DNA from: Marchantia polymorpha subsp. ruderalis
Lineage: Eukaryota > Streptophyta > Marchantiopsida > Marchantiales > Marchantiaceae
DNA length: 64,000 nucleotides
Reading direction: 5' to 3'
Assembly (NCBI GenBank): GCA_037833965.1
Contig: AP031358.1
Coordinates: forward strand, 22,142,001-22,206,000
The notes beneath the pieces are model-generated. The model saw only the letters and a list, made by a program, of their open reading frames with translations, was not told where the DNA came from and did no database searches. Shown piece by piece: positions 7,686 to 55,998 of the stretch; within the stretch, counting starts at the first letter, position 1; the number at the start of each line of letters is the position of its first letter. A program made the position numbers and the translations under genes.

Positions 7686-7690
7686 GTTTA
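7686..7690. repeat. Target-site duplication GTTTA (left)
   Basis: GTTTA directly precedes the TGTTAG start of the left LTR. The same five bases follow the right LTR at 29,341-29,345. This proves a single insertion event spanning both LTRs. Confidence 0.92.
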
Positions 7691-8136
7691 TGTTAGATAA
7701 TTTTGTTGTTTATTAGTTTTGGTATAATTTGTCATTAGTTGCAAGTGGCAACTGTTATTAGCGGAGTGTCTGCTCTCTCTTTCGCTGTACGCGCGTTGTG
7801 TAGTTAGCTGGTTCGACTCCTGCTTGGAGTTCATGCAGGAGTGAGTAAGTCCGAGTACTTAGGCATGGTTCCTACGTGTTCATAATGAGCAGTAAGTGCG
7901 TGTCATGCACTCAGGAAGGTGTTAATAGTATATATATCCTTTACATAAGAAAAGTATGCAAGTCTTACAGTGCACCACAATCGGTTTGCTAGCTTGAGTT
8001 CTGTTGCTCTCTTGTATGTTCTCTCTCTTGTGTCGAACAGGTTCCAGCAAGGCAGTTTGTCAAACAGTTTGTTTGTGTCTTGAGTGTTCTGTGTGATCAG
8101 GTGTGATCAGGTTGCAGCGGGCCGTGCAAACCAACA
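7691..8136 (+). repeat. Left LTR of copia element
   Basis: This 446-bp repeat begins TGTTAG and ends CAAACCAACA. It matches 28,797-29,340 over nearly its whole length. The right copy carries roughly 100 extra bases after the shared CAGTGCACCACAAT. A short tandem duplication (GTGATCAG twice) lies near 8,092. Confidence 0.92.
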
Positions 8137-14884: not shown

Positions 14885-16232
14885 ACACGTCCTCACGCGG
14901 CAGCCAGCCAGAGGTGCTTGTATCCCCTACGGCCTCACATGTGTCTGCACCATAGGAGGAGGAGCAATATACTCCGGTGGCTAGCAAGCAAGCAGAGGAC
15001 GCTAACCGCATCAAGATTGTTTCGCCGCCGTCGAGCATGCCATCCGGGATAGAACATGACAATGAAGGTGCAACACTACGCTATCGCACTGTGGCAGACT
15101 GTGTCGCCACCTCTGAGCCGCGAGAGCTCGACCTAGATGAGCTCCTGCTTGTTGCGTCCGAGCAGCCAAACACATTTGAGGAGGCGAACAGCGACCCGGC
15201 GTGGCGAGCGGCAATGGAGGAGGAGCTGATGGCCATCGTTGACCATGAAAGCTCGATCTAGATGAGCTCTTGCTTGCTGCGTCCGAGCAGCCAAACACAT
15301 TTGAGGAGGTGAATAGCGACCCGGCGTGACGAGGAGCAATGGAGAAGGAGCTGATGGCCATCGTTGACAATGACACATGGAGTCTGATGGATCTCCCCAC
15401 CGCCCACCGTCCGATTGGTCTGAAATGGATGTACAAACTCAAGAAGTATGCAAGCGGGGCGGTGATCCGTCACAAGGCACGGCTCGTGGCAAAAGGGTAT
15501 GTATAACGTGTCGGCATTGACTTTGAAAAAGGGTTTGCTCCGGTGGCGAGGCTCTACTCGGTGCACGCACTGCTAGCCGTCGTGGCACATAAGGCGTGGA
15601 CAATGCATAATCTCGACGTCAAGTTGGCATTTCTGAACAGCTACCTTGAAGAGGAAGTGTGCGTAGCACAACCTCCGGGGTTTGCCGTGGTGGGGCACGA
15701 GCGACAAGTGTTGAAGCTGAGCAAGGCCCTCTACGGTCTTTGTCAGGCACCTCGTGCATGAAACATAAAGCTCGATCGCACTTTGGTAGAGCTTGGTTTT
15801 TGCAAATGCACAGATGAACAGGAAGTGTACACGCACGGCAAAAGGCAGAAGCGCGTGCTCTTGGGCATGTACGTCAATGACCTAATCGTCATTGGTGCCG
15901 ACCAAGGCGAGGTCGACGCGTACAAGGAAGAGATGAAACACTCATTCAAAATGAACGATCTCGGGTGCCTGAATTATTACCCGGGCATCAAGATCAAGCA
16001 GCAACCGGGGCGAATCACGTTGTTACAGGTGGCGTACACAGCCAAACTACTTGAGAAGGCTGGCATGACCAACTACAACATCGTCCAAGTTCCGATGAAA
16101 AATTGCCTAAAGTTGAGTAAGCAAAGCACAACTCCTCATGTTGATGCATCATACTATCGCAGCATTGTGGCAAGTCTGAGGTATCTGGTTCATACCCGGT
16201 CGGACATCGGTTTTACATTCGGGTATGTGAGC
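14885..16232 (+). pseudogene. Copia reverse transcriptase, decayed
   Basis: This is a Ty1-copia reverse transcriptase (RVT_2 type) in pieces: SDPAWRAAMEEELMAIVD, GLKWMYKLKKYASGAVIRHK, ARLVAKGY, LDVKLAFLNSYLEEEVCVAQ, LSKALYGLCQAPRA, and YVNDLIVIGA, where the catalytic YVDD is changed to YVND. Stops include TAA at 15,504 and TGA at 15,759. A 125-bp tandem duplication (15,125-15,374) adds a frameshift. The frame ends at GYVS and continues across the second nested insertion as FME at 28,192. Confidence 0.92.
15125..15374 (+). repeat. 125-bp tandem duplication inside copia pol
   Basis: 15,125-15,249 is repeated at 15,250-15,374 with few differences. Both copies start AGCTCGA. The length is not a multiple of three, so it shifts the frame. 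Confidence 0.9.
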
Positions 16233-16236
16233 TGAT
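16233..16236. repeat. Target-site duplication TGAT (left) of second insert
   Basis: TGAT precedes TGTCATG at the left edge and follows GCACGACA at the right edge (28,189-28,192). Removing one copy plus the insert restores the copia reading frame (valine-serine, then phenylalanine-methionine-glutamate). A fifth base, T, is ambiguous because it matches on both sides. Confidence 0.75.
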
Positions 16237-16335
16237 TGTCATGTAGTTACGAGTCGGCTCACGAAGTTCAGACACTTACTATATTTAGCCGTAAAGTTAG
16301 GGTTCCGGTCACGAGGGGTATACAGTCGGGGACGG

Positions 16336-16359
16336 CTCGAAGAACGTCAGTTCTTCGAG
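16336..16359. repeat. Inverted repeat, 10-bp arms
   Basis: CTCGAAGAAC and its reverse complement GTTCTTCGAG are separated by four bases, about 100 bp inside the left end of the gypsy-type insert. Confidence 0.85.
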
Positions 16360-18190
16360 TCGAGCCTGGAAGCGTTGGGAGCGTAGAGTGACTTTCCCTT
16401 TTGCGTCGACCTGGATTCTCCGAGTGTGGAGTGGGTTGGGCTTGACTCATGTTTGTGACGGTGACGGTTTGTTGCCAGTAGGGTAATTGACCGACGGGAA
16501 TTCCAGTGGGGAATCTCCCGTCTATTTCACTCGAAGAACTCTGTGAACATCGAGTCGTCGGTGGGTTGTGGTCAGGTTTTGGCTGGAATGGTTTTCGTGT
16601 GTTTTCTTGTTCGTGGTTGAGGAAAAAAAAAAAAAATCGCGAACATCGAAGAAATTGTCGTGGTTGAGTTTCAATATTTTGAATTTGATCAAACAGAGGA
16701 GTCACTGTAAGAGAGCTCGAAGAATCAAATCAATTTCTGATGTCGGAGCTTGCGCGGATGGTGTTAGTGACATCATTGTTACGAGCGGGGTTCGAGATTT
16801 TGTTCTTGGCATGGTAGTTTCTTTGGAGAAATCAAAGTGGGAGGATTGAGGTGTATCGCGTGGCAGTCAGCAGGGTCGAGGTCAAGATGATGTGTTGAAA
16901 TCTCCGGTGTTCGAATGTGATTACAAGTGAGCGAAGAGAAGATTTGAGGGGCACTCGGCTAGTGACCGGTAGATGGCTACGGGCTCGAGGTTACTGTTTT
17001 TTTTGGGCCATCAAAAGTGAGAAACAGGATTCGCGTTCGCTGTTGCTGCTGCTCGTTCGGAGCTTCCCACTCTGCGCAATTTGTTTCGCCGCAGTTGTTG
17101 CCATTTCTGTCGATCTGAATTGTTCGATTCACAATATCGAAGCTACAGGTCTGCCAATTTGGTTCCATCTTGTATGTCAGCGTGGTTTGGATCGAATCTG
17201 CGCCTGAATCAGTGCTGGTTTGGGAGAAAACCCTAATAGAGTAGCCTCCCAGATTCAATAGCAAGTCACTGGAGTGCCGTAGTGGTCCAGGTAGTCGTCG
17301 TTGAATTGACCTCATCATCCGGCTTTCTAGAGCCAAGTGCACAATCATTGCTTGAGGAGAACAGAGGCGGTCAAACGCTCGAAGTTTGTGGTGCACTGGC
17401 CGGAATTTACACTTTAGGGCCGCCTAAGGCACTGGGTTGTTGGTCGAACTTGATGTCAACAGAACGTAAGACAGTTTGACTTGACCTCCGGCTCGAGAGA
17501 TTCAAGTTTTCGGGAAAGCTCGAGGGATTGAGCATTGAATTGCTGCCGTTTCGTGAGCTTTGGTACGTCCTCTCATATGAATCCGCAAGTGAGTGTCGGG
17601 GTTCTGGTGCAGGTGTGTGTTCTCACCGGGTTTTTTTCAACAGCGTGTCTAGTCTCTGTGTCCCTTCTGCACGGATTGCATGCCTATCTTCTTCCTGAAG
17701 CCGGAGAAAAAGAGTAAACCACAGGGAAGGGGAAACGAAGGCCTCAAGGTTCAGCCAGGCAGAAAAAGGGAAAGGAAACAGCAAAGATGTGTGGGACGAA
17801 GCCAGCTCTCATATTCTGAGAATTGATTTGGCCGAGTCTCAGCTAGATACTAGAAAATATATCCGCCAAATACCCTAAACCCGTCCATCAACGCCTGTTC
17901 GGTGCGCTGGTCGAGGGTTTAACGGGTAGGACTTGGCAGCCCGACGAACTCTGCATTTTCCGGAAGGGTGATATCGTGAACCAAAGCCGGCGCTGGCGTC
18001 GTAGTTCTGCAAGTCCTCAGTGATCGATTCACTGCCCACGATTCACGATTCAGGGGAATAATCGCCGTGGTAGGGTACTCCTTGTCTTGTCTCGACCTTG
18101 GGGGAACTCCGGACGCTGCATACCTACATCAATATCACCTGACCAGTAACTACGCACTTAGTCAGGCGCTTAATCGCTGCCACCTCGATA
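16360..18190. other. Left part of insert, no gene seen
   Basis: No conserved protein frame was found. The region contains an A-rich run at 16,623 and ACCCTAA motifs near 17,229 and 17,870. It may be a leader or an untranslated region of the insert, or captured host DNA. Confidence 0.45.
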
Positions 18191-18199
18191 AGCAGTGAG

Positions 18200-18586
18200 T
18201 TAGCAAGGAGAGTTGGGATTCCGAACAAAAGTTGGGATTAGCATTATAGTATTGAGTGGTTCAACGAAATCCGAGCTTAATCTACGAGATTGATCGGGCC
18301 GTATTGTAGTATTTGCAGGAAGATTCTGTGCAGAAATTATACCAGGTTGCTGTAAATTGAACTTGGATTCTGTTTTCTGAGTACGGTTGAATTCGATGGT
18401 TTTGACGAAGTCCCGAAACCCTAAGCATGAGGGGTAGTCTGGGGCATACTTGGAGCTCACGCTAGTGGAGTTCAAAAGATCCTCCAAGGGATGCCGATGG
18501 AGGGAGGAAGGAATGTTGGTATGCAATTCTTGGAGTCGTGCCGACAGAGCTGATGAATATGTCGGACAGCTTTCAATAACCGACAT
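18200..18586 (-). CDS. Unrecognised 128-residue antisense ORF
   Basis: The frame starts with ATG and reads MSVIESCPTYSSALSARLQE, later including HPLEDLLNSTSVSSKYAPDY. Its composition looks protein-like rather than random. It could be the first exon of a captured gene or an antisense ORF of the element, lying just downstream of the decayed coiled-coil ORF on the same strand. No family or motif was recognised. Confidence 0.3.
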   Translation of the reverse strand: MSVIESCPTYSSALSARLQELHTNIPSSLHRHPLEDLLNSTSVSSKYAPDYPSCLGFRDFVKTIEFNRTQKTESKFNLQQPGIISAQNLPANTTIRPDQSRRLSSDFVEPLNTIMLIPTFVRNPNSPC

Positions 18587-18668
18587 TTTACTTCAGGGCT
18601 TCAGGTTCAGGTTAATGGGCTTCTCGTAAGAACTCTGTCAGGCAGGAGAATCTCTCTTGACTGTGAGA

Positions 18669-19440
18669 TTACTCAATAAGTGCTAAGTTTGCAGTAGAAA
18701 ATTTCGAGATTGGAAATTGCAGATGGAAATTTCGAGTCCCCAGTTCTCCTGATATCCCTCTTAGTTCAAGACTCTCAAGCTGTTCTTTCAACTGACAAAT
18801 TTCTAGTCTTTCCTCCTGTGCCCTCTTCGCATGTGCCTCCGCCATGGCTGCCATACAGCATACGTCCTCAATATGGATCTGATCCTCCGACCGCTTCGCT
18901 TCTTCGCGTAGCCTCAGATGCTGTAAACTGGCCAGCTCCTTGGCCATTCTTAAAACCTGCTCTTTGTACTTGCTGCGAGTAACCATAAGAGCCTCCAACT
19001 TTTGTTGAAGGTCAAAGCACTGTTGCTGTAGCGACACGACTTTCGCAGATAGGCACGCTTCCGATGTATTTCTATAAGCTGCTTTGAGTTCTCAAAACTG
19101 CCGCTCAAGAGTTACAAGGGAGGAATTTGTGGAAGCAAAGCGTTTGTCCAAAGCTTTGTACTGGTCCTCTAAAGCAGCGTACTTGAGTTGTCCAAGCTCC
19201 AATCTATGCTCACATTCGACCTGAATCCTCTTTACGGCCACCTGGGCATATGTGTTGTGCTGAGCAAGATTCCTTCCTAGAGCTTCCCTCCTCAAAGAAA
19301 ACTGCTCCTCTGCCATAACGAGAGCTTTCTCCCTCTTCCCCAGCTGCATAGATTTTGACCCGTAGCTGTTGTTCCAGACCAATGTTCTCCTCTTGAATCT
19401 TTTGAATCTGGTAAACCATCTCGTTCTCTTTCTTCAACCA
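18669..19440 (-). pseudogene. Antisense coiled-coil ORF, broken
   Basis: Three minus-strand frames join into a single coiled-coil protein. The pieces include ENEMVYQIQKIQEENIGLEQ, KREKALVMAEEQFSLRREAL, RFASTNSSLVTLERQF, and then KLEALMVTRSKYKEQVLRMA and EERLEICQLKEQLESLELRG. One frameshift lies near 19,345 and a stop near 19,092. The heptad-like spacing of Leu, Ile and Val in a Glu/Gln/Arg-rich context indicates a long parallel helix. It resembles in kind, but not clearly in sequence, the coiled coil of the antisense ORF at 10,972-13,527. Both lie antisense inside elements. The function is unknown. Confidence 0.55.
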
Positions 19441-19603
19441 GTTCCTCTCAGTGAATTTGTTTATGCAAAGTTTTTTTTGAAACTATTAAACCCTTTTAAT
19501 AGTTTTATAGTTAAACAGTTTTCAGTCTTCCCTTCAGATTTAGTTTACGTATACTCTGTAAACAATCCTTGTACATAGTGAAGTGTTGACGCGTGAAGGG
19601 AAA

Positions 19604-19963
19604 ATGCCGCTTGGAGGAAAGGCAGACGACAGTGATATACAAGAAATCCAGACAGTGGAGGTCGTCAGCACCGAAGAACGTGATCAGGAGCAGGAAGTGA
19701 CGGTGCAGCCTCAAGTAGAAGAGAATCCGGTAAACACTGTTGTGGTAGAAGAAAAAGATTCCGGGTTAGATTGGGACGAGGCACTAGCCGTAGAGAAACT
19801 TCTAGAGGAATCCGGCCTAGAGTACAGGGTATGTGAGGATGAGTTACTAGACCTTGCGCAGGATATTGCCGACCATTTGAGAGATGTTCAGTATGTTCAA
19901 GACTGTCTTTCAGAAGAAATTCTTGTACTAGAGAAATTTCTTGATAGTCTCCCAAAGGATTGA
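19604..19963 (+). CDS. Small acidic protein of unknown function
   Basis: This 119-residue frame runs from the ATG at 19,604. It is strongly acidic (stretches such as EVVSTEERDQEQE and CEDELLDLAQDIADHL) with a probably helical C-terminal half (LSEEILVLEKFLDSLPKD). It lies on the same strand as the gypsy ORFs and about 900 bp before ORF1. It may be an accessory ORF of the element or a piece of captured host gene. No motif was recognised. The frame is intact and composition-biased, which argues against a purely chance ORF. Confidence 0.45.
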   Translation: MPLGGKADDSDIQEIQTVEVVSTEERDQEQEVTVQPQVEENPVNTVVVEEKDSGLDWDEALAVEKLLEESGLEYRVCEDELLDLAQDIADHLRDVQYVQDCLSEEILVLEKFLDSLPKD

Positions 19964-20142
19964 TAGCCAATACTTGTAGCGTTAAGCAGTAGGTACTGAA
20001 GGGATCGGGAATTTGCACCCGGTCTCACTACCTGTAAACGTGATGTTTTGAAAGCATTGTAAATATATATATGACGTAGTCAATATATTGAGCTTTCAGT
20101 GTGTACTGTGTTTGTTGAGGGACAGTGTGACCCCTGTGTGAA

Positions 20143-20190
20143 GGAGAAAAAAAAAAGAAAAAAAAAAAAGAAAAAAAAAAAAAAGTAAAA
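20143..20190. repeat. A-rich tract
   Basis: A run of A residues broken by single G residues lies about 700 bp before the Gag start. It could be a reverse-transcribed poly(A) end or slippage-grown low complexity. Confidence 0.9.
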
Positions 20191-20199
20191 GTTTTCAAA

Positions 20200-20865
20200 C
20201 AATTTTTGTTTGCAAGTTGGTGGAAGAGGGCATCATAGGCGCCGGAGGTCCATGTAGATGGAGGGCAATGGCGATCGAATCGGGATCGCGAAGCAATGCG
20301 ATGTCCCGTGTGTGTTGTCTTGTTTTGTGTTGTGTTTCCTTTAGACTGGAGAGTCGTTGCCAGCTGTTTACTTGTGTTTGGATCCTCTCCAGTCTTGCTT
20401 CCTGGTGCGCGCCCGTGTAGGGGTGACGCTGATTTCCGGAGTAGTTTTACTCCTGTGTGCTGGCGATAGGGGGCTGGACTTGATCACCGGCCGGTCTATC
20501 TATGTTTCTCTCACGGTGAGACTGGAGTGATGACCAGTAGACCGTGAGAGTCTTCTTGCTGTGATGACAGGTTAGGTTGCCCATACCCCTTAGCTAGTAG
20601 GGCTAGAGTAACTCAGTGCGGCACGACGTCAGGGGCGGATTGGGTTATTGGGTGGAGATCTGGCAGTGGTGCCAGTTGAAGTCTCGCCATCACGGAGCAG
20701 TCTAGTGGTCCTGTTGAGGACCGCGGGGGATTTACGCGGAGTGGGTTGAGGTATCAGCTACCTTCACCTATTTCGCCAGTTGTTGCGGAGCAGGACCAAA
20801 GTGTTGCAGACAGAGAGTCTTTGGTGGTGATATCGTCTAGTGTCCCCAGCCCATTGATTTGGGAC
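20200..20865 (+). other. Leader of gypsy ORF1
   Basis: This contains no gene. The Gag frame is open from about 20,675 but has no ATG before 20,866. TGGTGCCAG near 20,664 could be part of a primer-binding site, but no LTR end was found directly before it. Confidence 0.4.
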
Positions 20866-23800
20866 ATGGACGGGATGTACGGGGCCGCGAAGGGCCCTCG
20901 ACGTTACTCTGGTGCAGTGGGCACCATCGAGCTTGATGATTTTATTCAGGAGTTCGACACGTGGTGTGATATGCAGTTTCTGCGTAACCCCACGTTGTTT
21001 ACACCCTTCTTTGCATGGAAGGGATTATTCCAGCATTTGGAGGGGCCTCCCATGGACGATTATCATGAGTTTGGGAGAGAGTATGCTGTAGAGATTGATG
21101 CATGGAGACGGCATTGGTCTCCGAACTACTCATCCATTACCCAGGGTGGTGTGGGTACCAGTGGAGCTGCGAGTATCGGCATCAGTGGAGGTGCGAGTAG
21201 TAGCATCAGCGAGGGTACCAGTGGAGCAGTTGGCGCAACTGGTACTAGTACCAGCAGCGGTACTGTTAGCATTGCCGGTGGCAGCACGAGGGGAGATGCT
21301 GGTGGCGTACCTTCGTTTAGCCCCATTCCTGAGTTCTTCCAGAGATTGAGGAAGAATTATCAAGGGGTGAAAACAGAGAAGTTGAGGAGCCTCCAGGAGT
21401 TTGAGCGGAAGACTGGTGAGAGTCTTCGTGAGGCATACACTCGTATGCGACGGCTCATCTCAGTTACTCACGGTGTGACTGAGGCACAGGCTGTCCAGTA
21501 CTGGTATCGGATCCTTGACAGAGAGTTGCGGAGGAGAGTGCGTGATGCTACTCTCATGAGCGACTCATCACCCACATTAGCCCATGTGTTTGCTCTTTCT
21601 GAGAAGATTGAGCTTAACATGGTGGAGGAGAGGGTGGTGACGTCTACATTTGCGAGGGACACGACCACTACCTCGCGTATCCCACATAGCCCAGCACAGT
21701 CTCGCCCCATAAGTGGGAGTCGTGGAGGTCATACACGACATCCTTCAGGTCACAGAGAGCCTAGTGCGCGGCCACCACTGCCTTCATTTTCGGGTCAGCC
21801 ACAGGGACCGTCATGTTGGACATGCGGAGGTAGACATATGAGGAAGGATTGTCCCCAGGAGCGAGAGGGACAAACTCCACAGGCTAGGCCACAGCCGGCA
21901 CAGGTGACCTGTGATCATTGTCATCGACCGGGTCACCCTCGAGAGCGTTGCTTTGACCTTCATCCTGAGTTGAGATCTGGAGGTAGAGGTCGTGGAGGTG
22001 ATGCTCCGCGAGGTCGAGGTGGTCGAGGTGGCAGAGGTGGTAGAGGTGGTAGAGGTACCGGGGCCATTGAGCGTACCGCAGCGAGTGCTACTTCTGCCAC
22101 AGAGAGCGCTATGGCTGCTCGGATTGAGCAGTTGGAGCAGAGGCTTGCTGCTATGGCCGGTCTGGGGGCGAGCACTTCCACATCTTACGAGGGAGAGGAT
22201 TTCTCCTATTTGGCCAGTGCAGCACAGGTTGAGGCATCAGTTGCAGTGACCAGAGGTGGTGCTCGCACTTCAGAGCCACGTGGTGCGACTGTGGAGTTGG
22301 ACCCTCAGAGGGGTGAGGGTGGACGTCAGTCTAGACTTCCCCAGTCCTTTTTGTTGTCAGAGGTGGGTAGCAGTTCATCTATGAGACCTGCACCGCCTAC
22401 TGACACTAGAGTGAGAACTGAGGTTCTTACATCACCTGTTGTGGGCGCAGACGTGCCATCTAGTGCAGTGATGCGGATGGCCACTTCAGTCTTGCGATCT
22501 CCATTGTTCTCAGCCACGGAGTTGATAGACTCTGGTATTGATTTGGCTCGAGTATTTCGGGTAGCAGCCACGTCGTGTGAGCGTGGGAGAGTCGCTGCTA
22601 CTAGTGCCGAGATAAGTGAGGATACAGTTGAGGACCCATCCTCAACGTCTACATTGTTCGAGGAGACGACTTGGCAGGCCGCAGCGGCGAGGATGGAGTC
22701 CTTACCAGCTCGCCCAGCCATTGATCGCGAGAGTATTGTCCCTGGTGTATGTATGGTGGACAACCGAAGTGGTCTATTTCGGTTAGTGAGTTCTACTGGA
22801 CAGGTGTATGTCCCAGCCAGAGTTTTGTTGGATTCTGGTGCACAGCCCTTGATGTTGGGCAAGGCTGCATGCATTAGTTTGGGCATTAGGAGGTCCGAGT
22901 TGGAACCTTGCCCATTCCAGATCCAGACATCCCTTGGTGGTGCCAGCAATAGGTCTTACTTTATGACCAGGGAGAGCATAGCGGTGCAGTTGAGGCATGA
23001 TCACCCTCATGATAGCTCGCAGTTTGGAGTTCGTGCTGTGGTTACATCAGCAGAGTCATATGATGTGCTTGTTGGTGGAGTGGTGTTATACCCGATGGGC
23101 TTCCGGATGGACTATTGGACGGAGACTGCCGCATATCGTCCTGGTTGGCAGTCCGGAGATGGACGTTTGAGCGAACTGCCAGTGAGATTTATTTCTCGGG
23201 ATCGACCTCTTGGATCTTCGTCAGCGGTCTTGGCATCTGTAGCAGGTTTTAGCGGAGTGCTTACCTGGCCCGATGACTTGTTGGCGGGGAACATGTCTGC
23301 AGACGATACCTCACTCTACGAGGATGTGGAGGAGGTTGTGAGTTTCCCAGCGGCGGTGACTTCACCCTTAGATGTTCCACTGTGGAGTTCGTGCCAGGCC
23401 CTACAGTTGGAAGCTGATAGGTTGGTAAAAAAGGCTTGGAGTGAAGCCTCTTTACCAGCAGAGCCAGAGAGGGCTTCAGCTGATCGGCTAGTTGGTGGCT
23501 CTAGCGCATTGTCTCCATTGGTTACTACACCTATTGCATGGGAGTATTCCTCAGAGGGCGTTTGTTTGCTGGATCTTTTTGGTGGGATCAGCACCGGTTT
23601 GGCTGCGGTGTTGCAGTCAGGTATTCCCGTACGGAGATACTTGTATGTGGAGAAGGACGAGACTGCACGTCGAGTCTCTTCACGACATGTTGCACAGTTG
23701 ATGCGGCGTTTTCCTTCGTTGTTGCCGCGATCAGCTGTCCGAGGATTCCAGAAGGCGTTGCCTTCAGACATTTTGTTGCTGGGGGCGCCAGACCTTGACC

Positions 23801-24756
23801 GCGTTGGCCATATTGATATGCTGATTGCGGGCTGGCCATGTCAGGGACACACACGCGCTGGACATGGGACAGGGTTGCATGATCCCAGATCTCGGATGTT
23901 TTGGGAGATGATCCGAGTGTTACGTCATCTCCAAGTGCAGCAGACACGTTCTCCATCATACATTCTGGAGAACGTACCATTGTTGGGTGACACTCGGGTC
24001 CAGTTGATGGCGAGTGTCCATCAAGTCCGAGCATGGATTGGATCAGCAGTACTGTTGGATGCTGCGAGGGTTGGATCACGGGCGCATCGTGCACGTTTGT
24101 GGTGGACCAACCTTTTGCCACGTGAGATATTGCGTCATGCTTATGATTCGGTGTATCGTGATCCTACCCTCACCGTTGACAGGATCTTGGATGTCTCTCG
24201 ATACTCTCAGGTGGTGAGAGTGGCGGATAGGTCACCCATGGCGTTGGTGAACCGCGTAGGTCAGCCTCGGATGGCTTTACCTACATTTGTCAGTTATCCG
24301 GCATCACATGCATATCGTGATGGGGGACCTGGACTACTGTGGGACAGTACCCTACATCAGTTGGTGGAGCCCAACGCTGATGAGAGAGAGCGTGCGATGG
24401 GGTTTCTTACTGGTGTGACCGCGGCTTCTTCAGTTTCAGAGGCGTCGCGTCGTCAGGTTTTGGGTCAGGCTATGGACCTGAACTGCTTGACGTGGATTGT
24501 GAGCTTGGGTTTGGCCGAGCAACGCCGTTTGCGCGCAGATTTGGTGGTTGTTACACCACTTATTAGCTCATTGCCTACCGGGACAGTAGTGGCAATGGCT
24601 GGGGGCGACAGGCGAGATATTCGGCATCCTTGGAGTTTATGGGACGTGACGAAAGGACTTGCCAGAGTTGCAGCCCATGCAGTTGGAGAGGATTCTCAGG
24701 TGGAGGTGGCTACGAAGGAGGGTACGGAGAACCCTTCTTTGCAGTGTGTAGCGTAG
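20866..24756 (+). CDS. Gag-protease-DNA cytosine methyltransferase polyprotein (ORF1)
   Basis: This is a 1,296-residue frame from the first ATG. Order: a Gag domain (about 10-260) with a Ser/Gly/Thr-rich insert; zinc knuckles at about 317 (CWTCGGRHMRKDC) and 350 (CDHCHRPGHPRERC); an Arg-Gly repeat (about 375-400); a short helix; an aspartic protease with DSGA at 656; then a C5-methyltransferase at about 890-1,215. The methyltransferase shows motif I LLDLFGGISTGL (D903), motif II YVEKDE, motif IV GWPCQG with catalytic C992, motif VI ENV (1,035-1,037), motif VIII RAHRAR (H1074) and a motif X-like RRQVLGQAMDLN. Motif order is canonical, unlike the rearranged plant DRM enzymes. The HRAR and following W-x-N-L and the C-terminal part recall DNMT3. 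The enzyme would put methyl groups on cytosine in DNA, perhaps on the element's own cDNA. All catalytic residues are present. It ends at an in-frame UAG. Confidence 0.93.
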   Translation: MDGMYGAAKGPRRYSGAVGTIELDDFIQEFDTWCDMQFLRNPTLFTPFFAWKGLFQHLEGPPMDDYHEFGREYAVEIDAWRRHWSPNYSSITQGGVGTSGAASIGISGGASSSISEGTSGAVGATGTSTSSGTVSIAGGSTRGDAGGVPSFSPIPEFFQRLRKNYQGVKTEKLRSLQEFERKTGESLREAYTRMRRLISVTHGVTEAQAVQYWYRILDRELRRRVRDATLMSDSSPTLAHVFALSEKIELNMVEERVVTSTFARDTTTTSRIPHSPAQSRPISGSRGGHTRHPSGHREPSARPPLPSFSGQPQGPSCWTCGGRHMRKDCPQEREGQTPQARPQPAQVTCDHCHRPGHPRERCFDLHPELRSGGRGRGGDAPRGRGGRGGRGGRGGRGTGAIERTAASATSATESAMAARIEQLEQRLAAMAGLGASTSTSYEGEDFSYLASAAQVEASVAVTRGGARTSEPRGATVELDPQRGEGGRQSRLPQSFLLSEVGSSSSMRPAPPTDTRVRTEVLTSPVVGADVPSSAVMRMATSVLRSPLFSATELIDSGIDLARVFRVAATSCERGRVAATSAEISEDTVEDPSSTSTLFEETTWQAAAARMESLPARPAIDRESIVPGVCMVDNRSGLFRLVSSTGQVYVPARVLLDSGAQPLMLGKAACISLGIRRSELEPCPFQIQTSLGGASNRSYFMTRESIAVQLRHDHPHDSSQFGVRAVVTSAESYDVLVGGVVLYPMGFRMDYWTETAAYRPGWQSGDGRLSELPVRFISRDRPLGSSSAVLASVAGFSGVLTWPDDLLAGNMSADDTSLYEDVEEVVSFPAAVTSPLDVPLWSSCQALQLEADRLVKKAWSEASLPAEPERASADRLVGGSSALSPLVTTPIAWEYSSEGVCLLDLFGGISTGLAAVLQSGIPVRRYLYVEKDETARRVSSRHVAQLMRRFPSLLPRSAVRGFQKALPSDILLLGAPDLDRVGHIDMLIAGWPCQGHTRAGHGTGLHDPRSRMFWEMIRVLRHLQVQQTRSPSYILENVPLLGDTRVQLMASVHQVRAWIGSAVLLDAARVGSRAHRARLWWTNLLPREILRHAYDSVYRDPTLTVDRILDVSRYSQVVRVADRSPMALVNRVGQPRMALPTFVSYPASHAYRDGGPGLLWDSTLHQLVEPNADERERAMGFLTGVTAASSVSEASRRQVLGQAMDLNCLTWIVSLGLAEQRRLRADLVVVTPLISSLPTGTVVAMAGGDRRDIRHPWSLWDVTKGLARVAAHAVGEDSQVEVATKEGTENPSLQCVA
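21990..22075 (+). repeat. Arg-Gly-coding minisatellite
   Basis: Tandem units of GGTAGAGGT and GGTCGAGGT encode an RGG-type basic tract after the second zinc knuckle. Such tracts bind RNA, and here it probably assists genome packaging. Confidence 0.75.
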
Positions 24757-24762
24757 CAACCA
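24754..24762 (+). promoter_or_regulatory. Candidate stop-codon readthrough signal (UAG CAA CCA)
   Basis: ORF1 ends with TAG, and the same frame continues without another stop into reverse transcriptase. The six bases after the stop, CAA CCA, match the CAR-YYA context known to promote leaky UAG readthrough in tobamoviruses. Readthrough would give a fusion of about 2,339 residues and set the ratio of Gag-methyltransferase to Pol. Confidence 0.65.
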
Positions 24763-27700
24763 TTGACAGTGTCGCCTCCCTCTAGTGTGCCTATGGAGGA
24801 GGAGTGGGAGCCATTGATTGGTTCCCAGATCACAGGAGGAGAGAGGCGACGATTGACACAATTCCTACGAGACTATAGGAGTTGTTTTGCTTTCAGTATG
24901 AAGGAGTTGGGTGCGTTGATTGGACCCGGTATACGGATAGAATTGGCTAGTGATACGCCAATCTTCCGTCGTCCTTATCGGTACAGTGAGATGGAGAGAG
25001 ATTTGATTCGGAGTAGGACGTTGGACCTACTAGAGGCTGGACTAGTGGAGTTATCGCATGGTGAGTATGCGTCAGCCACTGTCATGCCGGTGAAGAAGGA
25101 TGTACATGGCAACTACACGGATAGGCGCATGTGTGGAGACTACCGTCCTATCAATCGGCAGACGAAGTCCGATAAGTATGCCATGCCTACACCTGAGGAG
25201 ATCTTCGATGTGGTGGGACATGCGAGGATTTTTAGTACTTTGGATCTTCGGGCAGGATACCATCAGTTGCCAATTCGGGAGGAGGACAAAACCAAGACAG
25301 CGTTTTGGGGCGTCAACTCCCACGGCAAGGATTGTTTGTATCAGTGGCGATTCTTACCCTTTGGGTTGAAGAATGCACCTGCCGAGTTTCAGAGGGTTAT
25401 GGACAGAATCCTGGCGGGGCTGGATTTTGTCAGATGTTACATTGATGATATCTTGGTGTTTAGTGACACTGTGGAGCAACACCAGATACACTTGCATATT
25501 GTGTTTGAGCGATTGAGGGCTCATGGTTTGAGGTTACATCCTGGGAAGTGTAAGTTCTTCCAGGAGAAGGTTGAGTACTTGGGTCATGTGATATACCCAG
25601 GTGGTTTAGGAGTTCAGCAAGCAAAGGTGGAGGCTATTGCACGCATCCCTCGTCCCACGGATGTGAGTAGAGTTCGTGCATTTATGGGTTTAGCGAACTA
25701 CTACCGGAGATATGTGAAGGGGTTCAGTGCTATAGCCAAGCCTTTGAACCAGTTGCTGAAGTCAGATCAGGAGTGGCAATGGGGAGATGAGCAGGAGAGA
25801 GCTTTTGTTGAGCTCAAGGCCAGGTTGGTGGCCGCTCCCATCTTGAGGAGACCTATCAGAGGTCGTCCATACCAATTGCACACTGATTGGAGTATGTTGG
25901 GACTTGGAGCGGTGTTGACGCAGCGTGATGATGAGGGCAAGGAGTTTGTGGTTGCGTACGCTAGTCGTTCGAACAATGCAGCGGAGTCGCGGTATAGTTC
26001 GTACGAGGGAGAGTGCTTGGCAGCGGTGTGGGCTGTGGCGCACTTCAGGTGTTACTTGTTTGGTACGCAGTTCACCCTTGTTACTGATCATCAACCGCTC
26101 AAGTGGTTGATGGAGTCCGACAAGCTTACAGGGAAGCTTGCACGGTGGGCTCTCATCTTACAAGAGTACGACTTTCAGGTGGTGCATAGACCTGGAGTTG
26201 CGAACCTAGATGCCGATGGTTTGAGTCGAAACCCATGCACTAGCCAGGAGGATGACACTGGAGCTAGATGGCATGGTGAGGTTGACGAGGAGATGGTGCC
26301 TGGTTGGCATGCATCTGCCTTCATGTGTTGGTTACGTGGGAACTCCAGCAGAGAGGATCATCTGACATCTTACTCTAGTCAGAGAGTAGATGGTCGATCT
26401 CCAGATCCTGAGGTTGAGGATGGTGGTATGGATCAGCGTGATGTACACGATGATGCATTGGTGTTGGAGTTTCTACGGACTAGCATGGTGCCAGGCACAG
26501 TGGGTGCCAAGGAGCGAGATCGTGTTCTCCAACGGGCCAAGAGGTACCGATTGGAGGGATCACATGTTCTCCGAGTATGGGAGGACGGTAGGGTACGAGT
26601 AGTACCACATCCAGCCCAGAGAGCACGCATTGTGAAGCATGCTCATGAGGAGTTGGGACATTTTGGAGTGAAGCGTACATACAGCTTTCTCCTTGGTCAG
26701 TATTGGTGGCGTGGTATGCATACTCAGGTACAGCAGTTGGTATCACGTTGCATGGTTTGTGATCGAGTGAGGGCATCATTCAATGCCCCGACACCAGTGT
26801 TACATCCATTACCCATCATGGGTTTAGGTTACCGTTGGAGTTTGGACTTTGCTGGACCACTACCTTTGACTGTACGACATCATCGGTATGTGTTGGTGAT
26901 GGTGGAGCATTTCTCCAAGTGGATTGAGTTGGTGGCATTACCTGACAAGGCAAGTGAGGGAGTAGCGTATGCTTTTCTTGACAGAGTGCTTAGTCACTAT
27001 GGTGCACCAGCTGAGGTGTTGACCGATCAGGGAACGGAGTTTCAGGGTGATTTTCAGGTCTTGTGCGACAAGGCACTGATTGATCATCGGACCACGTCGC
27101 GAGATCATCCAGAGGCGGATGGTTTAGCTGAACGTGTTGTACAGACGGTGAAGAGGGCGTTGCGCAAGTATGGCCTGCAGAAAGGTCATCTTGGGGACTG
27201 GGATATCCAGTTACCGTGGTTGGCCATGGGATATCGGTTCAGTCGGCAGGCATCCTTGACTTCCTTCTCACCATATTTTCTATTGTACGGCCGAGATCCA
27301 GACTTGCCAACATCGATTCGTCGTGAGTCTAGCGAGGTGGTGAACCTTGATGACCCGAATATGTGGGTGAGAGTATGTTCTCAACGTGCAGAGCTCTTTC
27401 GGAGAGTTATGCCTGCAGCGTTTGAGAATCTTGCGATTGCTCAACATAGAGATACGTTGCGGTATGCAACCATTCGGGGAGGAGGTTATCGACCATCAAT
27501 TCGTAGGTTCCATGTGGGAGACTACGTCTATCTACAGCAGATTGCACTGACGACATTGGATGTGACGGCGGGACGCACCATCTTGCGGGTGCGGGAGGTA
27601 TTATCTTCTGGAGTTCTCCTGTTGGAGGGTCGTGACGGCGTTGTTTGGAAGGATAATGTGCGCAATTGTGCGCCATGCCACCTCCCAAACGTAGATGGCA

Positions 27701-27885
27701 CTATGGACCCAAGCTCAGCGATAGTACGTGCTAGCTTGAGGTGCATGCTGTGTGGGTCGGCTGGTCAGGCGGCCCGTATGTTGGTGTGTGATAGGTGCTC
27801 TAGGGGATGGCACATGTCGTGCCTAACTCCGCCTATCGATGTTATTCCGGCTGGACGATGGGTTTGTCCTCGATGTACTTCATAG
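24757..27885 (+). CDS. Pol: reverse transcriptase, RNase H, integrase, PHD finger (ORF2)
   Basis: The frame continues from ORF1 after the UAG. Its first ATG is 24,793 (1,030 residues from there, the numbering used here). Reverse transcriptase spans about 30-290 with YIDD at 216-219. RNase H starts near 360 with D365 in HTDWS, then YEGE and TDHQ. Integrase has a zinc site with H618, H623, C653, C656 and a DDE core with D685 (SLDFAGP), D745 (LTDQGTEF) and E780 (LAERVV). A C4HC3 PHD finger closes the protein at about 984-1,028 (CMLC, MLVCDRC, GWHMSC, WVCPRC). No protease is present because it lies in ORF1. A PHD finger reads histone H3 tails in known proteins, and here it takes the place where many gypsy integrases carry a chromodomain. 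All catalytic residues are intact. Confidence 0.95.
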   Translation, partial: QPLTVSPPSSVPMEEEWEPLIGSQITGGERRRLTQFLRDYRSCFAFSMKELGALIGPGIRIELASDTPIFRRPYRYSEMERDLIRSRTLDLLEAGLVELSHGEYASATVMPVKKDVHGNYTDRRMCGDYRPINRQTKSDKYAMPTPEEIFDVVGHARIFSTLDLRAGYHQLPIREEDKTKTAFWGVNSHGKDCLYQWRFLPFGLKNAPAEFQRVMDRILAGLDFVRCYIDDILVFSDTVEQHQIHLHIVFERLRAHGLRLHPGKCKFFQEKVEYLGHVIYPGGLGVQQAKVEAIARIPRPTDVSRVRAFMGLANYYRRYVKGFSAIAKPLNQLLKSDQEWQWGDEQERAFVELKARLVAAPILRRPIRGRPYQLHTDWSMLGLGAVLTQRDDEGKEFVVAYASRSNNAAESRYSSYEGECLAAVWAVAHFRCYLFGTQFTLVTDHQPLKWLMESDKLTGKLARWALILQEYDFQVVHRPGVANLDADGLSRNPCTSQEDDTGARWHGEVDEEMVPGWHASAFMCWLRGNSSREDHLTSYSSQRVDGRSPDPEVEDGGMDQRDVHDDALVLEFLRTSMVPGTVGAKERDRVLQRAKRYRLEGSHVLRVWEDGRVRVVPHPAQRARIVKHAHEELGHFGVKRTYSFLLGQYWWRGMHTQVQQLVSRCMVCDRVRASFNAPTPVLHPLPIMGLGYRWSLDFAGPLPLTVRHHRYVLVMVEHFSKWIELVALPDKASEGVAYAFLDRVLSHYGAPAEVLTDQGTEFQGDFQVLCDKALIDHRTTSRDHPEADGLAERVVQTVKRALRKYGLQKGHLGDWDIQLPWLAMGYRFSRQASLTSFSPYFLLYGRDPDLPTSIRRESSEVVNLDDPNMWVRVCSQRAELFRRVMPAAFENLAIAQHRDTLRYATIRGGGYRPSIRRFHVGDYVYLQQIALTTLDVTAGRTILRVREVLSSGVLLLEGRDGVVWKDNVRNCAPCHLPNVDGTMDPSSAIVRASLRCMLCGSAGQAARMLVCDRCSRGWHMSCLTPPIDVIPAGRWVCPRCTS

Positions 27886-28188
27886 GGGTAGATGACTTGA
27901 TCTTCACATGTTATGAATTGCAGATAGGCGACTAACGATGGGGCGACATAGCACCCGGCCTACTGGTTCGCGCACCCACGACGGTGTATAGCATGTAGTT
28001 GTAGATGGGGCTACCTGGGAGTCAGAGGGACCTGACCGCCAGCTAGGGGGGCGAGTTGTGACATTTGAGTGTGTACTCTCTCGACCCAAAGTTGACTCGC
28101 GCCTTATATGTGTGTATGTGTGTGCGTATGTGTATGTGAGTAGCATGTCAGCGATGTAGAGTGTATGGCGATATGTATTCGCACGACA
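27886..28188 (+). other. 3' end of gypsy-type insert
   Basis: After the Pol stop there is a polypurine-like AGGGGGGCGAG at about 28,045-28,055, then TGTGACATTTGAG, which looks like an LTR start, and a TG-rich stretch (28,108-28,140). The insert ends GCACGACA 132 bp later. If this is the 3' LTR it is very short, and no matching 5' copy was found. Confidence 0.5.
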
Positions 28189-28782
28189 TGATTCATGGAG
28201 AACACCACGACGTAGCATCTCAGCACCGTCAAGCACATTCTTTGATACATAGTAGGCACTCTGCAGTACAGATTGAGCTACACAAAGGGCAAAGGTGAGA
28301 TCAAGCTCAATGGTTACAGTGATGCAAACATGGCTGGAGATGTGGATGACTGCAAGAGCACAACGGGTGTTTCATTTTGTTTTGGGAAACCACCATTAAC
28401 ATGGCATTCTCGAAAGTAGCCAGTGGTGGCACTGTCATCGTGCGAGGCCAAATACATTGCAGCCTTTACAGCCGCTTGCGAGGGCCTTTGGCTTGGAAGT
28501 CTCCTTGGAAGCTTCTACGGAAAGGTAGCGAGCATTGCCATCATCTTCATCGACAATCAATCAGTCATCCAATTGTGCAAAAATTTGATGTTTCATGGTC
28601 GGAATAAGCACATCAAAACACAGTTCCATTTCATTAGAGAGTGTGTCGAGGGCGGTGAAGTTATCGCATATAAGATTCACACTACCAATCAGCTGGCGGA
28701 CATTCTAACAAAATCTCTTGGCCGGGTCAAATTCCTAGATGTGCGCTCAAAGATCGGCGTCGTCAACACTCTCGACAACTAG
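28189..28782 (+). pseudogene. Copia RNase H, decayed
   Basis: The copia frame resumes with FMEN, then TVKHIL, YIVGTLQYRLSYTKGKGE, GYSDANMAGDVDDCKSTTG, ALSSCEAKYIAAFTAACEG, IIFIDNQSVIQLCKN, KHIKTQFHFIRE and QLADILTKSL. These are the hallmarks of the copia-type RNase H and pol end. Stops lie at 28,213 (TAG), 28,243 (TGA, where arginine is expected) and 28,417 (TAG). The last part from 28,423 is an open frame of 119 codons to the stop. Confidence 0.93.
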
Positions 28783-28783
28783 A

Positions 28784-28796
28784 TTAGGGGGAGTAA
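28784..28796 (+). promoter_or_regulatory. Polypurine tract of copia element
   Basis: A purine-rich run, GATTAGGGGGAGTAA-like, directly precedes the right LTR. It would prime plus-strand DNA synthesis. Confidence 0.75.
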
Positions 28797-29340
28797 TGTT
28801 AGATAATCTTGTTGTTTACTAGTTTTGGTATAATCTGTCATTAGTTGCAGGTGGCAACTGTTATTAGCGTAGTGTCTGTTCTCTCTCTCGCTGTACGCGC
28901 GTTGTGTAGTTAGGTGATTCGACTCCTGCGTGGAGTTCATGCAGGAGTGAGTAAGTCGAGTACTTAGGCATGGTCTCTATGTGTTCATAATGAGCAATAA
29001 GTGTGTGTCATGCAGTCATGAAGGTGTTAGTAGTATATATATCCTTTACATAAGAAAAGTCTGCAAGTCTTACAGTGCACCACAATGAACACTGTAAGTT
29101 ATTCACACAACCGTGAAACTTGACGCAACTTATAATATTATTTACATGCTAGCGAGCAAGATCCCGAGGCTCACTTGTTGTTCACTCCCGAGATTCTGTT
29201 TTGTTCCCGAGGTTCTGTTGCTCACTTGTATGTTCTCTCTCTTGTGTTGAACAGTTTGCAGTTGTGCAGTTTGTCTAACAGTTTGTTTGTGTCTTGAGTG
29301 TTCTGTGCGATGAGGTTGCAATGGGCCGTGCAAACCAACA
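28797..29340 (+). repeat. Right LTR of copia element, with insertion
   Basis: This matches the left LTR at both ends (TGTTAG ... CCAACA). It is about 100 bp longer because roughly 29,086-29,215 replaces a short stretch of the left copy. The first 81 bp of the extra DNA is an inverted copy of 30,544-30,624. Confidence 0.92.
29086..29166 (+). repeat. Inverted copy inside right LTR, arm 1
   Basis: These 81 bp are the reverse complement of 30,544-30,624, with one mismatch seen. They are absent from the left LTR, so they were added after the copia insertion or during its replication. Confidence 0.93.
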
Positions 29341-29345: not shown

Positions 29346-30543
29346 TATTGCAGACTTGTAACAATGTGAATAACTTGGAGGAGTAGGAGATATATCCTTG
29401 AGCCTCATGAACTGTAGAAGAATCTTTGTCTCCGTATGCTACTTAGACCAAGCGTGCAAAACATCTTTGATTTACACCTTTTTCAGAGCCAAATTAACTT
29501 AGATATCATGATTGTGGATAGGTAATGATTGGATCCAATTAGCATACTCAGAAGAGACGTCCGTTTTTTGAAGACGCAATGGATCCCTCAATCTAGCCAC
29601 CGCTGGACACTATCTCACTAGTTAATTTTTTGCACATGCGAGTTTAGTTATTTTTGTTATATTTCCAATCATTGTCGTCCGACTCCTGCTAAATATCTCT
29701 AATATATAAGCGTTGCCATCACACTTGAAGGGGCTTGAGGCATTGTTCTAAATTTTCACTCCCTATAGCTTGCAGTGTATACATCTAATTGGCTAGATAA
29801 ACCCCCCAAAATGGGAAGACTCCATCAAACCTTACTACAAGCAAACTATTACAACAAGAAAACTCAATGAGATATCGAGCTTCTCGACCCCGATACTATG
29901 ACAATAGAAAATGTCTTACATCATCTACAAACAACATGATGCTCCATCACATAACCTGAGTGTTCTTCTACTATGTTTAACATTAACTAGCGCTATTTTG
30001 AAAGTTGATACGTTGATGAATTGATTTTTCATCACTTAAAAGTATGACTCTCTCTCGTGAGAAGCCATCCTGATAGAAGAAAGAAAAATGTAAACATCAT
30101 GTAGGTGAAAGCAAAGGTGTTCAAATACCATCCCCGATCAGCTTCACACAAACCCAAGCCCTGAGAGTAGAAGTGGGGTTGTACAGGAGGACTAGGAAAA
30201 CATTATCCATTTAGACATGAGGTCTCTTCTTGCAGGTACTTGAAGAACTCAAATGACCGTAACACTTAGTAAAGAGTCATAGAATAAGCTTGAAGAGCCC
30301 TTGCAACCTTACCATATTCACCAGTTTGTCTTAGAATTCTACACCGTCGTAATCAAGCCGCACGTAATCATAATATGGCTCAATCGAGTCCCAGCTTGTG
30401 TTGCAATACACACTCTTCTTGCACTGTACTTATATTTCATTATCAAAATCTTGCAGATCTAGCTGCCACTCTATGATAAGAACATTATTCTCCAGTATTA
30501 TATCGTGGAAGTAAGAGAAACGAAATTCAATTTAACTACTCCA
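29346..30543. other. Intergenic region, no gene seen
   Basis: There is no long frame or recognised motif. Short frames are interrupted and AT-rich. Confidence 0.5.
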
Positions 30544-30624
30544 CGGGATCTTGCTCGCTGGCATGTAAATAATATTATAAGTTGCGTCAAGTTTCACGGT
30601 TGTGTGAATAACTTACAGTGTTCA
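30544..30624 (-). repeat. Inverted copy, arm 2 (probable donor)
   Basis: This is the reverse complement of 29,086-29,166 with one difference. It lies 1.2 kb outside the right LTR, in unique-looking DNA, so it is the likely source of the sequence now inside the LTR. Confidence 0.93.
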
Positions 30625-30839
30625 TGCAGGCTCATATGCTGCAGCGAGCTTCCCATGACAATGTTGTACACACCAAGTACTGTATAAAAGGCAGTTGCTC
30701 TACAAACTGCAGTTATCTTATAATCAAGATATGGAAACAGGTCAATGTCCAAATGCTTAAACCAGATCAATCGGTCAATCGATCATCTCAGATATCCCCG
30801 AGCACAAATCACCACTTATACATGCACGTAATTGTGTAC

Positions 30840-52366: not shown

Positions 52367-52389
52367 AAGTTATTTGAGATAAATCTGAA

Positions 52390-55996: not shown

Positions 55997-55998
55997 TC

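What the first reader, a model, noticed from the sequence alone, without database searches (positions are those of the whole stretch)
20866..24756. Retrotransposon that carries a complete cytosine-C5 DNA methyltransferase
After the protease, ORF1 continues into a methyltransferase with motifs I (LLDLFGG), IV (GWPCQG), VI (ENV), VIII (RAHRAR) and an X-like end, all intact and in canonical order. It sits in the Gag-level product, so it would be made in large amounts and could be packaged. A self-methylating element could hide from or exploit host silencing. I recall reports of methyltransferases captured by retrotransposons in dinoflagellates and a charophyte alga, but I could not check them. 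A land-plant case in this arrangement would be notable.
Basis: partly seen in the sequence, partly recalled or inferred. Interest (0 to 1): 0.95.

Follow-up and report, generated by a model that had tools for sequence, protein, structure and literature searches.

The report
Marchantia retrotransposon carrying a DNA methyltransferase
A jumping genetic element in the liverwort Marchantia carries an intact gene for an enzyme of the kind that puts silencing marks on DNA, kept by selection in many copies, which makes the odd idea of a transposon that marks its own DNA testable in a laboratory plant.

Summary
Window 16237-28188 is a gypsy-type element, in a Marchantia polymorpha genome, nested in a Copia element and flanked by a 4-bp duplication. 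ORF1 (20866-24756) is gag, zinc knuckles, protease, then a complete DNMT3-like C5-cytosine methyltransferase (23536-24525). Six motifs checked are intact here and in 20 of 20 long-frame copies; dN/dS is 0.14-0.28, like gag, protease and RT; the predicted fold matches DNMT3A/B best. One UAG in a tobamovirus-type leaky context, 34 of 35 copies, separates it from in-frame pol, so the enzyme belongs to the Gag-level product. Pol ends in a PHD finger, not a chromodomain. The kind is known: DNMT3-carrying gypsy elements were described in the alga Klebsormidium (PMC5890265). The 28 relatives sampled form one clade (100/100) from algae to liverworts, so this is a land-plant variant, not a new kind. 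Further: split direct repeats with TG...CA ends and 4-bp duplications, a likely self-priming site, and a captured spliced cDNA in the leader. Enzyme activity and self-methylation are inferred, not shown.

The parts
16233..16236 (.). 5' copy of the 4-bp target-site duplication TGAT
   Evidence: 5 of 5 insertions with both ends in hand have perfect 4-bp repeats (a sixth, L021/L032, could not be tested)
16237..16528 (+). B1: 5' terminal repeat unit, begins TGTCATG; the repeat recurs as B2 at the 3' end of long-form copies
16349..16360 (+). AGTTCTTCGAGT in B1: exact complement of the primer site, predicted RNA 5' end (Tf1-like self-primer; inferred)
   Evidence: 12-nt match at the same place in 4 of 5 B1 units; 0 of 2000 single-base shuffles of the window unit
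16529..16540 (+). putative primer-binding site ACTCGAAGAACT directly after B1
16541..20745 (+). long leader, mosaic; its first part differs between copies
18734..19450 (-). spliced cDNA of another locus (4 exons, 3 introns removed), presumably a host gene, antisense to the element
   Evidence: C5:10380342-10381573, 96-99% identity, GT-AG at all three introns
20866..24756 (+). ORF1 from ATG: gag - CCHC x2 - protease - DNMT3-like methyltransferase
21814..21951 (+). two CCHC zinc knuckles
   Evidence: read from sequence
22822..22848 (+). protease active site VLLDSGAQP
   Evidence: RVP_2 weak match below cut-off
23536..24525 (+). C5-cytosine methyltransferase domain (330 aa), motifs I, IV, VI, VIII, IX, X
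24754..24762 (+). UAG CAA CCA: stop in a type I leaky context (UAG-CARYYA) between ORF1 and pol
24757..27885 (+). pol, same frame as ORF1: RT, RNase H, H2C2, DDE integrase, PHD
27742..27876 (+). PHD finger at the C-terminus of integrase
   Evidence: (PF00628 9.5e-11)
28045..28053 (+). polypurine-like tract (AGGGGGGCG) before A1
   Evidence: inferred
28054..28188 (+). A1: 3' terminal repeat unit, ends CGACA; this copy is the short form without B2-A2
28189..28192 (.). 3' copy of the target-site duplication TGAT
7690..8136 (+). 5' LTR of the Copia element into which the element is inserted (context)
   Evidence: Copia-type RT (RVT_2) at 15783-16235
28796..29340 (+). 3' LTR of the same Copia element (context)

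Best explanation
An autonomous gypsy-type retrotransposon of Marchantia polymorpha with a captured DNMT3-like methyltransferase fused behind its protease. Shown from sequence: the domain is complete, intact in many copies and under purifying selection; it is upstream of a leaky-type UAG, so it belongs to the Gag product; one clade of such DNMTs spans green algae to liverworts. Inferred: Gag-protease-DNMT is packaged into the particle, the protease frees the enzyme, and it methylates the element's own double-stranded cDNA before or at integration, so that new copies enter chromatin already marked. Inferred benefit: early quiet insertion lowers damage to the host and so loss of the copy, while transcription happens in windows of reprogramming. 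The PHD finger on integrase would bias insertion by reading the histone H3 tail. RNA synthesis starts inside B1, self-primes at the site after B1, and the terminal A and B repeats are rebuilt from the internal A-B junction; integrase cuts at that TG/CA junction and makes 4-bp TSDs (all of this sentence but the TSDs and ends is inferred).
For: Domain, motifs and fold. Motifs identical in 20 of 20 long-frame copies plus the window, one of the 20 with a stop elsewhere in the domain. dN/dS of the DNMT 0.22 within the main subfamily (17 ORF1s, 136 pairs), 0.144 against a second subfamily (34 pairs) and 0.28 in the one pair L024/L028, versus gag 0.07-0.25, protease 0.11-0.15, RT 0.28, while the ORF1 tail is 0.35-0.58 and an ORF2 spacer 1.28. 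Young family: RT copies 91-100% identical, 138 scored of 3146 candidates; A1 and A2 identical in 13 of 13 copies compared; 13 of 20 fetched copies plus the window have both frames open. UAG-CARYYA in 34 of 35 although flanking codons differ between subfamilies. Same place (protease-DNMT-RT) in Klebsormidium P0039 and one DNMT clade, 100/100. TSDs, ends and self-primer. Single-copy changes are mostly C-to-T (ORF1 119, against 18 A-to-G/T-to-C and 64 transversions), as expected of methylated DNA. Precedent: DNMTs of Symbiodinium DIRS elements methylate CG in yeast (PMC5890265, section read).
Against: No activity data. In the published yeast test the Klebsormidium gypsy DNMT, the nearest tested relative, gave no methylation; the authors call it inconclusive because human DNMT3B failed too. 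The C-to-T excess cannot separate the element's enzyme from host methylation; no control family was run, and the preference for CG is clear in ORF1 but not in ORF2. Fetched copies were chosen for long open frames, which favours intact domains. 54 of 138 scored RT copies had no Pfam DNMT hit within 6 kb; of 14 of these looked at, 2 have no domain, 2 part of it, 10 the whole, and 8 of those 10 carry a lesion. The PHD finger is less constrained within the subfamily (0.40). Readthrough, packaging, self-priming and PHD binding rest on sequence context only.
Confidence: 0.55

Rival explanations
1. The enzyme acts on host chromatin rather than on the element's cDNA: it methylates or competes at host loci (for example by drawing on SAM, host DNMT partners or host target sites), changing the host's silencing to the element's benefit.
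For: Made with Gag if translated (UAG position); DNMT3-type fold that in animals works on nucleosomal DNA; PHD finger in the same element.
Against: Fusion inside the particle precursor, between protease and RT, in the lineages whose order I could read (Marchantia, Klebsormidium P0039 and others) points to the particle; no nuclear localisation was tested.
Confidence: 0.2
2. The domain is kept for binding nucleic acid or for particle structure; methyl transfer is not its role.
For: Conservation alone cannot prove catalysis; three relatives have E for P in motif IV (P0035, P0037, P0040).
Against: Of 43 relatives aligned, all 37 with letters at the catalytic Cys have C and all 42 with letters at the motif VI Glu have E; the motifs are identical in 21 of 21 long-frame Marchantia copies.
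Confidence: 0.08
3. The enzyme methylates the element's RNA (as DNMT2 does tRNA) and not DNA.
For: Packaged with RNA if it is in Gag; DNMT2 scores among relatives (1e-8).
Confidence: 0.05
4. A host methyltransferase gene fragment passively captured and decaying, or a gene-model or assembly artefact.
For: The window copy does carry a captured spliced cDNA in its leader.
Against: Hits in long open frames on several contigs and retro-type hits on all nine; relatives with pol domains in Sphagnum, Klebsormidium and Cymbomonas; one clade; purifying selection.
Confidence: 0.01

Closest known systems
KnitGypsy-Dnmt3 of Klebsormidium nitens (de Mendoza et al. 2018, PMC5890265; sections 9 and 10 read, other passages seen)
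   Same: Gypsy pol, intronless DNMT3-type domain between protease and RT, repeats described in a legend as DIRS-like, purifying selection; the K. nitens protein P0039 falls in the same retro-DNMT clade
   Different: There the DNMT is in the Pol ORF; here a leaky-type UAG puts it in the Gag product. The paper's main text has no occurrence of PHD, target site duplication, readthrough, priming, moss or Marchantia; figures and supplements were not seen. Pol is 47% identical
SymbioDIRS-Dnmt3 and SymbioLINE-Dnmt of Symbiodinium (same paper, passages read)
   Same: Retrotransposons with a C5-MTase; the DIRS enzymes methylate CG in yeast
   Different: Other retrotransposon classes (tyrosine recombinase or LINE); called an independent acquisition by the authors; not placed in my tree
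Chromoviruses, including the Tcn1 clade and Tf1/Sushi group (PMC6317226, passages read)
   Same: Gypsy elements with a chromatin-reader domain at the integrase C-terminus; Tcn1 and Tf1/Sushi are predicted or known to self-prime
   Different: PHD finger instead of chromodomain, DNMT, split repeats
DIRS/Ngaro elements (structure recalled; the term split direct repeats seen only in the listing)
   Same: Split direct repeats of the form B1 - body - A1 B2 A2
   Different: No tyrosine recombinase found; DDE integrase and 4-bp TSDs here
Plant DNMT3 (Marchantia L001, Riccia, Sphagnum, lycophytes)
   Same: Nearest named host enzyme class, non-rearranged motif order
   Different: L001 lies in two separate open frames, read as exons; these rows lie apart from the retro clade with strong support

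Membership tests
C5-cytosine DNA methyltransferase (PF00145) | Motifs I, IV (PC), VI (ENV), VIII, IX, X in canonical order with the class I MTase fold | tested here: met
C5-cytosine DNA methyltransferase (PF00145) | Transfers methyl groups to cytosine in DNA | not testable with these tools
   no activity data
DNMT3-type enzymes | Closer in sequence to DNMT3 than to DRM, DNMT2 or bacterial MTases | tested here: met
   DNMT3A 2e-24, DRM 6e-15, DNMT2 1e-8, HaeIII 1e-8, HhaI 4e-7; no DNMT1 or CMT chain among the 59 matches
DNMT3-type enzymes | Closest fold | tested here: inconclusive
DNMT3-type enzymes | Nested in the DNMT3 clade of a rooted tree | tested here: inconclusive
   unrooted; retro clade 100/100, apart from plant DNMT3 and DNMT3-like bacterial rows; no DNMT1 or animal rows
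Charophyte DNMT3-gypsy elements (KnitGypsy-Dnmt3 group) | Common origin of the DNMT and same place between protease and RT | tested here: met
Charophyte DNMT3-gypsy elements (KnitGypsy-Dnmt3 group) | DNMT inside the Pol ORF | tested here: not met
   UAG between DNMT and RT in 34 of 35 copies; hence filed as a variant
Charophyte DNMT3-gypsy elements (KnitGypsy-Dnmt3 group) | DIRS-like arrangement of repeats | tested here: met
   the paper's figure itself was not seen, only its legend
Ty3/gypsy | RT - RNase H - DDE integrase order, TG...CA ends, 4-6 bp TSD | tested here: met
Ty3/gypsy | Plain LTR at both ends | tested here: not met
   5' end has B only, 3' end A-B-A or A
DIRS/Ngaro | Tyrosine recombinase and no TSD | tested here: not met
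   rve integrase, no tyrosine recombinase match in the two ORFs and 4-bp TSDs in 5 of 5
Chromovirus | Chromodomain at the integrase C-terminus | tested here: not met
   PHD finger, no chromodomain match at E up to 1
Type I stop-codon readthrough | UAG followed by CARYYA with an open frame beyond | tested here: met
   consensus from PMC3542737 passages
Type I stop-codon readthrough | Measured readthrough | not testable with these tools
   none
Tf1-type self-priming | PBS complementary to the 5' end of the element's own RNA | tested here: inconclusive
   12-nt complement found in 4 of 5 B1 units but the RNA 5' end is not known

The most novel reading that the evidence does not exclude
A retrotransposon lineage that carries both a writer and a reader of chromatin marks: a DNMT3 in the particle that methylates the element's own cDNA before integration, and an H3-tail-reading PHD finger on the integrase that aims insertion. 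It was captured once early in green plants and has spread since, perhaps also sideways between liverworts and Sphagnum, and it inserts from circles by cutting a permanent A-B junction.
Probability: 0.3. Interest if true: 0.88.

Novelty: new variant of a known kind. Interest (0 to 1): 0.64.

Why it matters
Whether transposons can write their own silencing marks has been open since DNMT-carrying elements were reported in dinoflagellates and one alga, hosts that are harder to work with. Marchantia polymorpha is a haploid, transformable plant with good genomes and methylomes (recalled), and this family is young there, with at least 25 long open DNMT frames, so activity, packaging and methylation of unintegrated cDNA can be tested directly. 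It also matters for anyone who counts DNA methyltransferases in this plant or reads its methylome: a 2018 methylome paper lists five host enzymes (PMC5784723, passage read).

Tried and rejected
Ordinary LTRs: the first repeat scans found none around the ORFs; the 7690/28796 repeat was first taken for the element's LTR and then shown to belong to the Copia element around it. An intron retained in one copy's leader (277-bp gap) was checked and rejected: no GT-AG. Horizontal transfer between Marchantia and Sphagnum: Sphagnum nests among the liverworts (95/81), the DNMT is 73-80% identical (two Sphagnum rows), against 54% for host DNMT3 (S. magellanicum row), and two pol pieces (138 and 135 aa) are 87% and 82%; but the AU test does not reject liverworts as one clade (p 0.21), so this stays a lead. 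Viral contigs gave no relatives. In the VIA table DRM and DNMT1 are not listed, which excludes nothing. The target specificity (CG or other) was not assessed. RNA structure after the UAG was not folded. C3:19066770 and C2:6442483 (L034, L035) were fetched but not read. In one search synonymous divergence between subfamilies is lower in the DNMT (0.28) than in gag (0.50-0.63), which hints at recombination between subfamilies and was not followed.

Not in print: literature searches of the held library listed no paper on a Marchantia DNMT-retrotransposon and none on a gypsy element with a PHD finger; each listing shows only the best 1-20 of up to 255 matching papers, most subscription papers are not held, and a figure could show what a text does not name.
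Full report
1. What is there. The window lies in a 241-Mb, nine-contig genome (G000:C9:22142001-22206000). The closest proteins, up to 94% identical over the whole DNMT query, are Marchantia polymorpha gene models, so the host is M. polymorpha or a very near relative. ORF1 is open from ATG 20866 to TAG 24754-24756, and pol follows in the same frame to 27885. Pfam finds DNA_methylase in ORF1 above its cut-off, and RT, RNase H, H2C2, rve and a C-terminal PHD finger in pol; gag and protease matches are weak and below cut-off, and I place those domains by the two CCHC knuckles and the DSG motif.

3. Copies. A PF00145 search of the genome scored 123 of 290 candidates. Most rows match the profile from about position 57-61 on, as the window's own row does; two of another kind were read and are host DNMT3-type and DRM genes (L001, L002). 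Twenty-five rows, the window included, have an open frame of 1324 aa or more (lower bounds). I fetched 20 copies with frames of 1274 aa or more. All six motifs are identical in the window and in 20 of 20, one of which (L023) has a stop elsewhere in the domain. ORF1 and the 1042-aa pol are both open in 13 of 20 and in the window. An RT search scored 138 of 3146 candidates, at 91-100% identity; 84 of 138 have a Pfam DNMT hit within 6 kb on the same strand, and 37 of the 44 with an intact pol frame do. Of the 54 without such a hit I fetched 14, among them all 7 with intact pol: 10 hold the whole domain, 2 part of it, 2 none; 8 of the 10 carry a lesion. So the domain belongs to the family, and decaying copies lose it.

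4. Selection. Codon comparison used 19 ORF1s (L022 and L023 of 21 dropped for broken frames) and 15 ORF2s (six of 21 dropped). Within the main subfamily (17 ORF1s) dN/dS is 0.22 for the DNMT, 0.23 gag, 0.14 protease, 0.28 RT, 0.11 RNase H, 0.31 integrase, 0.40 PHD. Against the second subfamily (L024, L028) it is 0.144 for the DNMT, 0.10-0.25 gag, 0.145 protease; in the single pair L024/L028 it is 0.28 for the DNMT. The spacer before the DNMT (0.38 within), the ORF1 tail (0.35 and 0.58) and an ORF2 spacer (1.28) show weaker constraint. The fetched copies were picked for long frames; this excludes stops but cannot by itself create a low dN/dS.

5. Gag or Pol. The stop between DNMT and RT is UAG followed by CAACCA, or CAACTA in L024, in 34 of 35 copies; L047 has a sense codon (in the recount my pattern missed L028, whose printed letters fit). 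Codons before it differ between subfamilies while the motif stays. UAG-CARYYA is the tobamovirus type I readthrough context (PMC3542737, passages read). Readthrough itself was not measured.

6. Ends. The element starts with B1 (292 nt, TGTCATG...) and ends with A (119-135 nt...CGACA). Of the 18 fetched copies whose 3' end was in view, 16 continue from A1 into B2, most ending A1-GC-B2-A2 (L012 has an extra round, L016 a shortened A2, L017 runs into a second element); A1 and A2 are identical in the other 13, although A1 differs by 0-5 positions between copies. Insertions with both ends in hand have perfect 4-bp duplications in 5 of 5, including TGAT around the window element; in L032, upstream of L021, the 5' end was not found. 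The window copy, L009 and L024 are short forms with A only (TSD tested only for the window among these). The A1-B2 junction holds the palindrome GACAGCTGTC, the two integrase ends head to head. I infer that integrase acts on this junction in circular DNA: a circle with one A-B unit gives the short form, one with two gives the long form. De Mendoza et al. describe the Klebsormidium repeats as DIRS-like (figure legend read). Right after B1 comes ACTCGAAGAACT, whose exact complement lies at position 113 of B in 4 of 5 B1 units (the fifth, L010, has one change) and in 0 of 2000 single-base shuffles of the window's unit, so self-priming as in Tf1 is likely.

7. Relatives and origin. Besides Marchantia polymorpha, relatives of the DNMT were found in Sphagnum fallax and S. 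troendelagicum, Calypogeia fissa, Riccia sorocarpa, Marchantia paleacea, Klebsormidium nitens, Cymbomonas tetramitiformis and many environmental contigs; pol domains in the same protein were seen for Sphagnum P0024, K. nitens P0039 and Cymbomonas P0040, while the Calypogeia, Riccia and M. paleacea hits are short proteins whose surroundings were not seen. In a tree of 50 rows the 28 retro-type rows form one side of a 100/100 branch against plant DNMT3 and DNMT3-like bacterial rows (unrooted, one MpDRM row long-branched). The order protease-DNMT-RT is the same in K. nitens P0039. The simplest reading is one capture early in green plants; the 2018 paper, whose text reports it in green plants only from K. 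nitens, spoke of an acquisition in the K. nitens lineage. Several environmental relatives also end in a PHD finger (P0037, P0041, P0042); the domain list of Cymbomonas P0040 shows none.

8. Mechanism and its limits. Position in Gag, selection on catalytic motifs and the precedent of active SymbioDIRS enzymes make methylation of the element's own cDNA the best guess. Changes found in one copy only are mostly C-to-T: 119 against 18 A-to-G/T-to-C and 64 transversions in ORF1, 73 against 16 and 25 in ORF2. Per site the rate is highest at CG in ORF1 (0.090, CHG 0.049, CHH 0.048) but not in ORF2 (CG 0.057, CHG 0.062, CHH 0.039). That fits methylated copies but does not say who methylated them.

9. 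Novelty. The kind is known. The land-plant occurrence with many intact copies, the Gag-side placement by a leaky-type UAG, the PHD finger on integrase, and 4-bp TSDs on split repeats were in none of the listings or passages that I saw. [quoted passage not shown]

Noticed in passing
window 18734-19450: The leader holds a spliced, antisense cDNA of another locus, presumably a host coiled-coil gene: four exons of C5:10380342-10381573 joined, three GT-AG introns missing, 96-99% identity; no Pfam match above cut-off.
   Followed up: yes
window 16541-19450; L029, L031, L033: In the copies compared, leaders between the primer site and gag are largely unrelated to each other (L029 and L030 share about 900 nt) and are mosaics shared with a few other places; the family may be a regular gene capturer.
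   Followed up: partly
window 7690-29340: The element is nested in a Copia element (LTRs 7690-8136 and 28796-29340, RVT_2 at 15783-16235), and the insertion lies in the Copia coding part.
   Followed up: partly
window 29085-29169 and 30541-30625: 85-nt inverted repeat, 98% complementary, beginning inside the Copia 3' LTR; possibly another small insertion.
   Followed up: no
P0046: A protein named as a cytosine methyltransferase of a Candidatus Obscuribacterales MAG falls inside the retro-DNMT clade; probably contamination of the MAG.
   Followed up: no
P0024, P0063, P0090: Sphagnum retro-DNMTs are closer to Marchantia's than host DNMT3 genes are (73-80% vs 54%, the latter from another Sphagnum species); hint of horizontal transfer, not proven.
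   Followed up: partly
L001 (C6:12459429): A host DNMT3-type gene exists in this genome besides DRM; the 2018 methylome paper's list of five enzymes has no DNMT3 (passage).
   Followed up: partly
window 55946-56043 and 50692-52369: Near-perfect palindromes at 55946-55996 and 55999-56043, and a 672-nt inverted repeat at 70%.
   Followed up: no
L017 and L036 (C2:20.75 Mb): Neighbouring copies with rearranged ends, one running into the start of another and one with gag inverted.
   Followed up: no
DNMT part of ORF1, subfamilies of window and L024/L028: Synonymous divergence between subfamilies is lower in the DNMT (0.28) than in gag (0.50-0.63), a hint of recombination between subfamilies.
   Followed up: no
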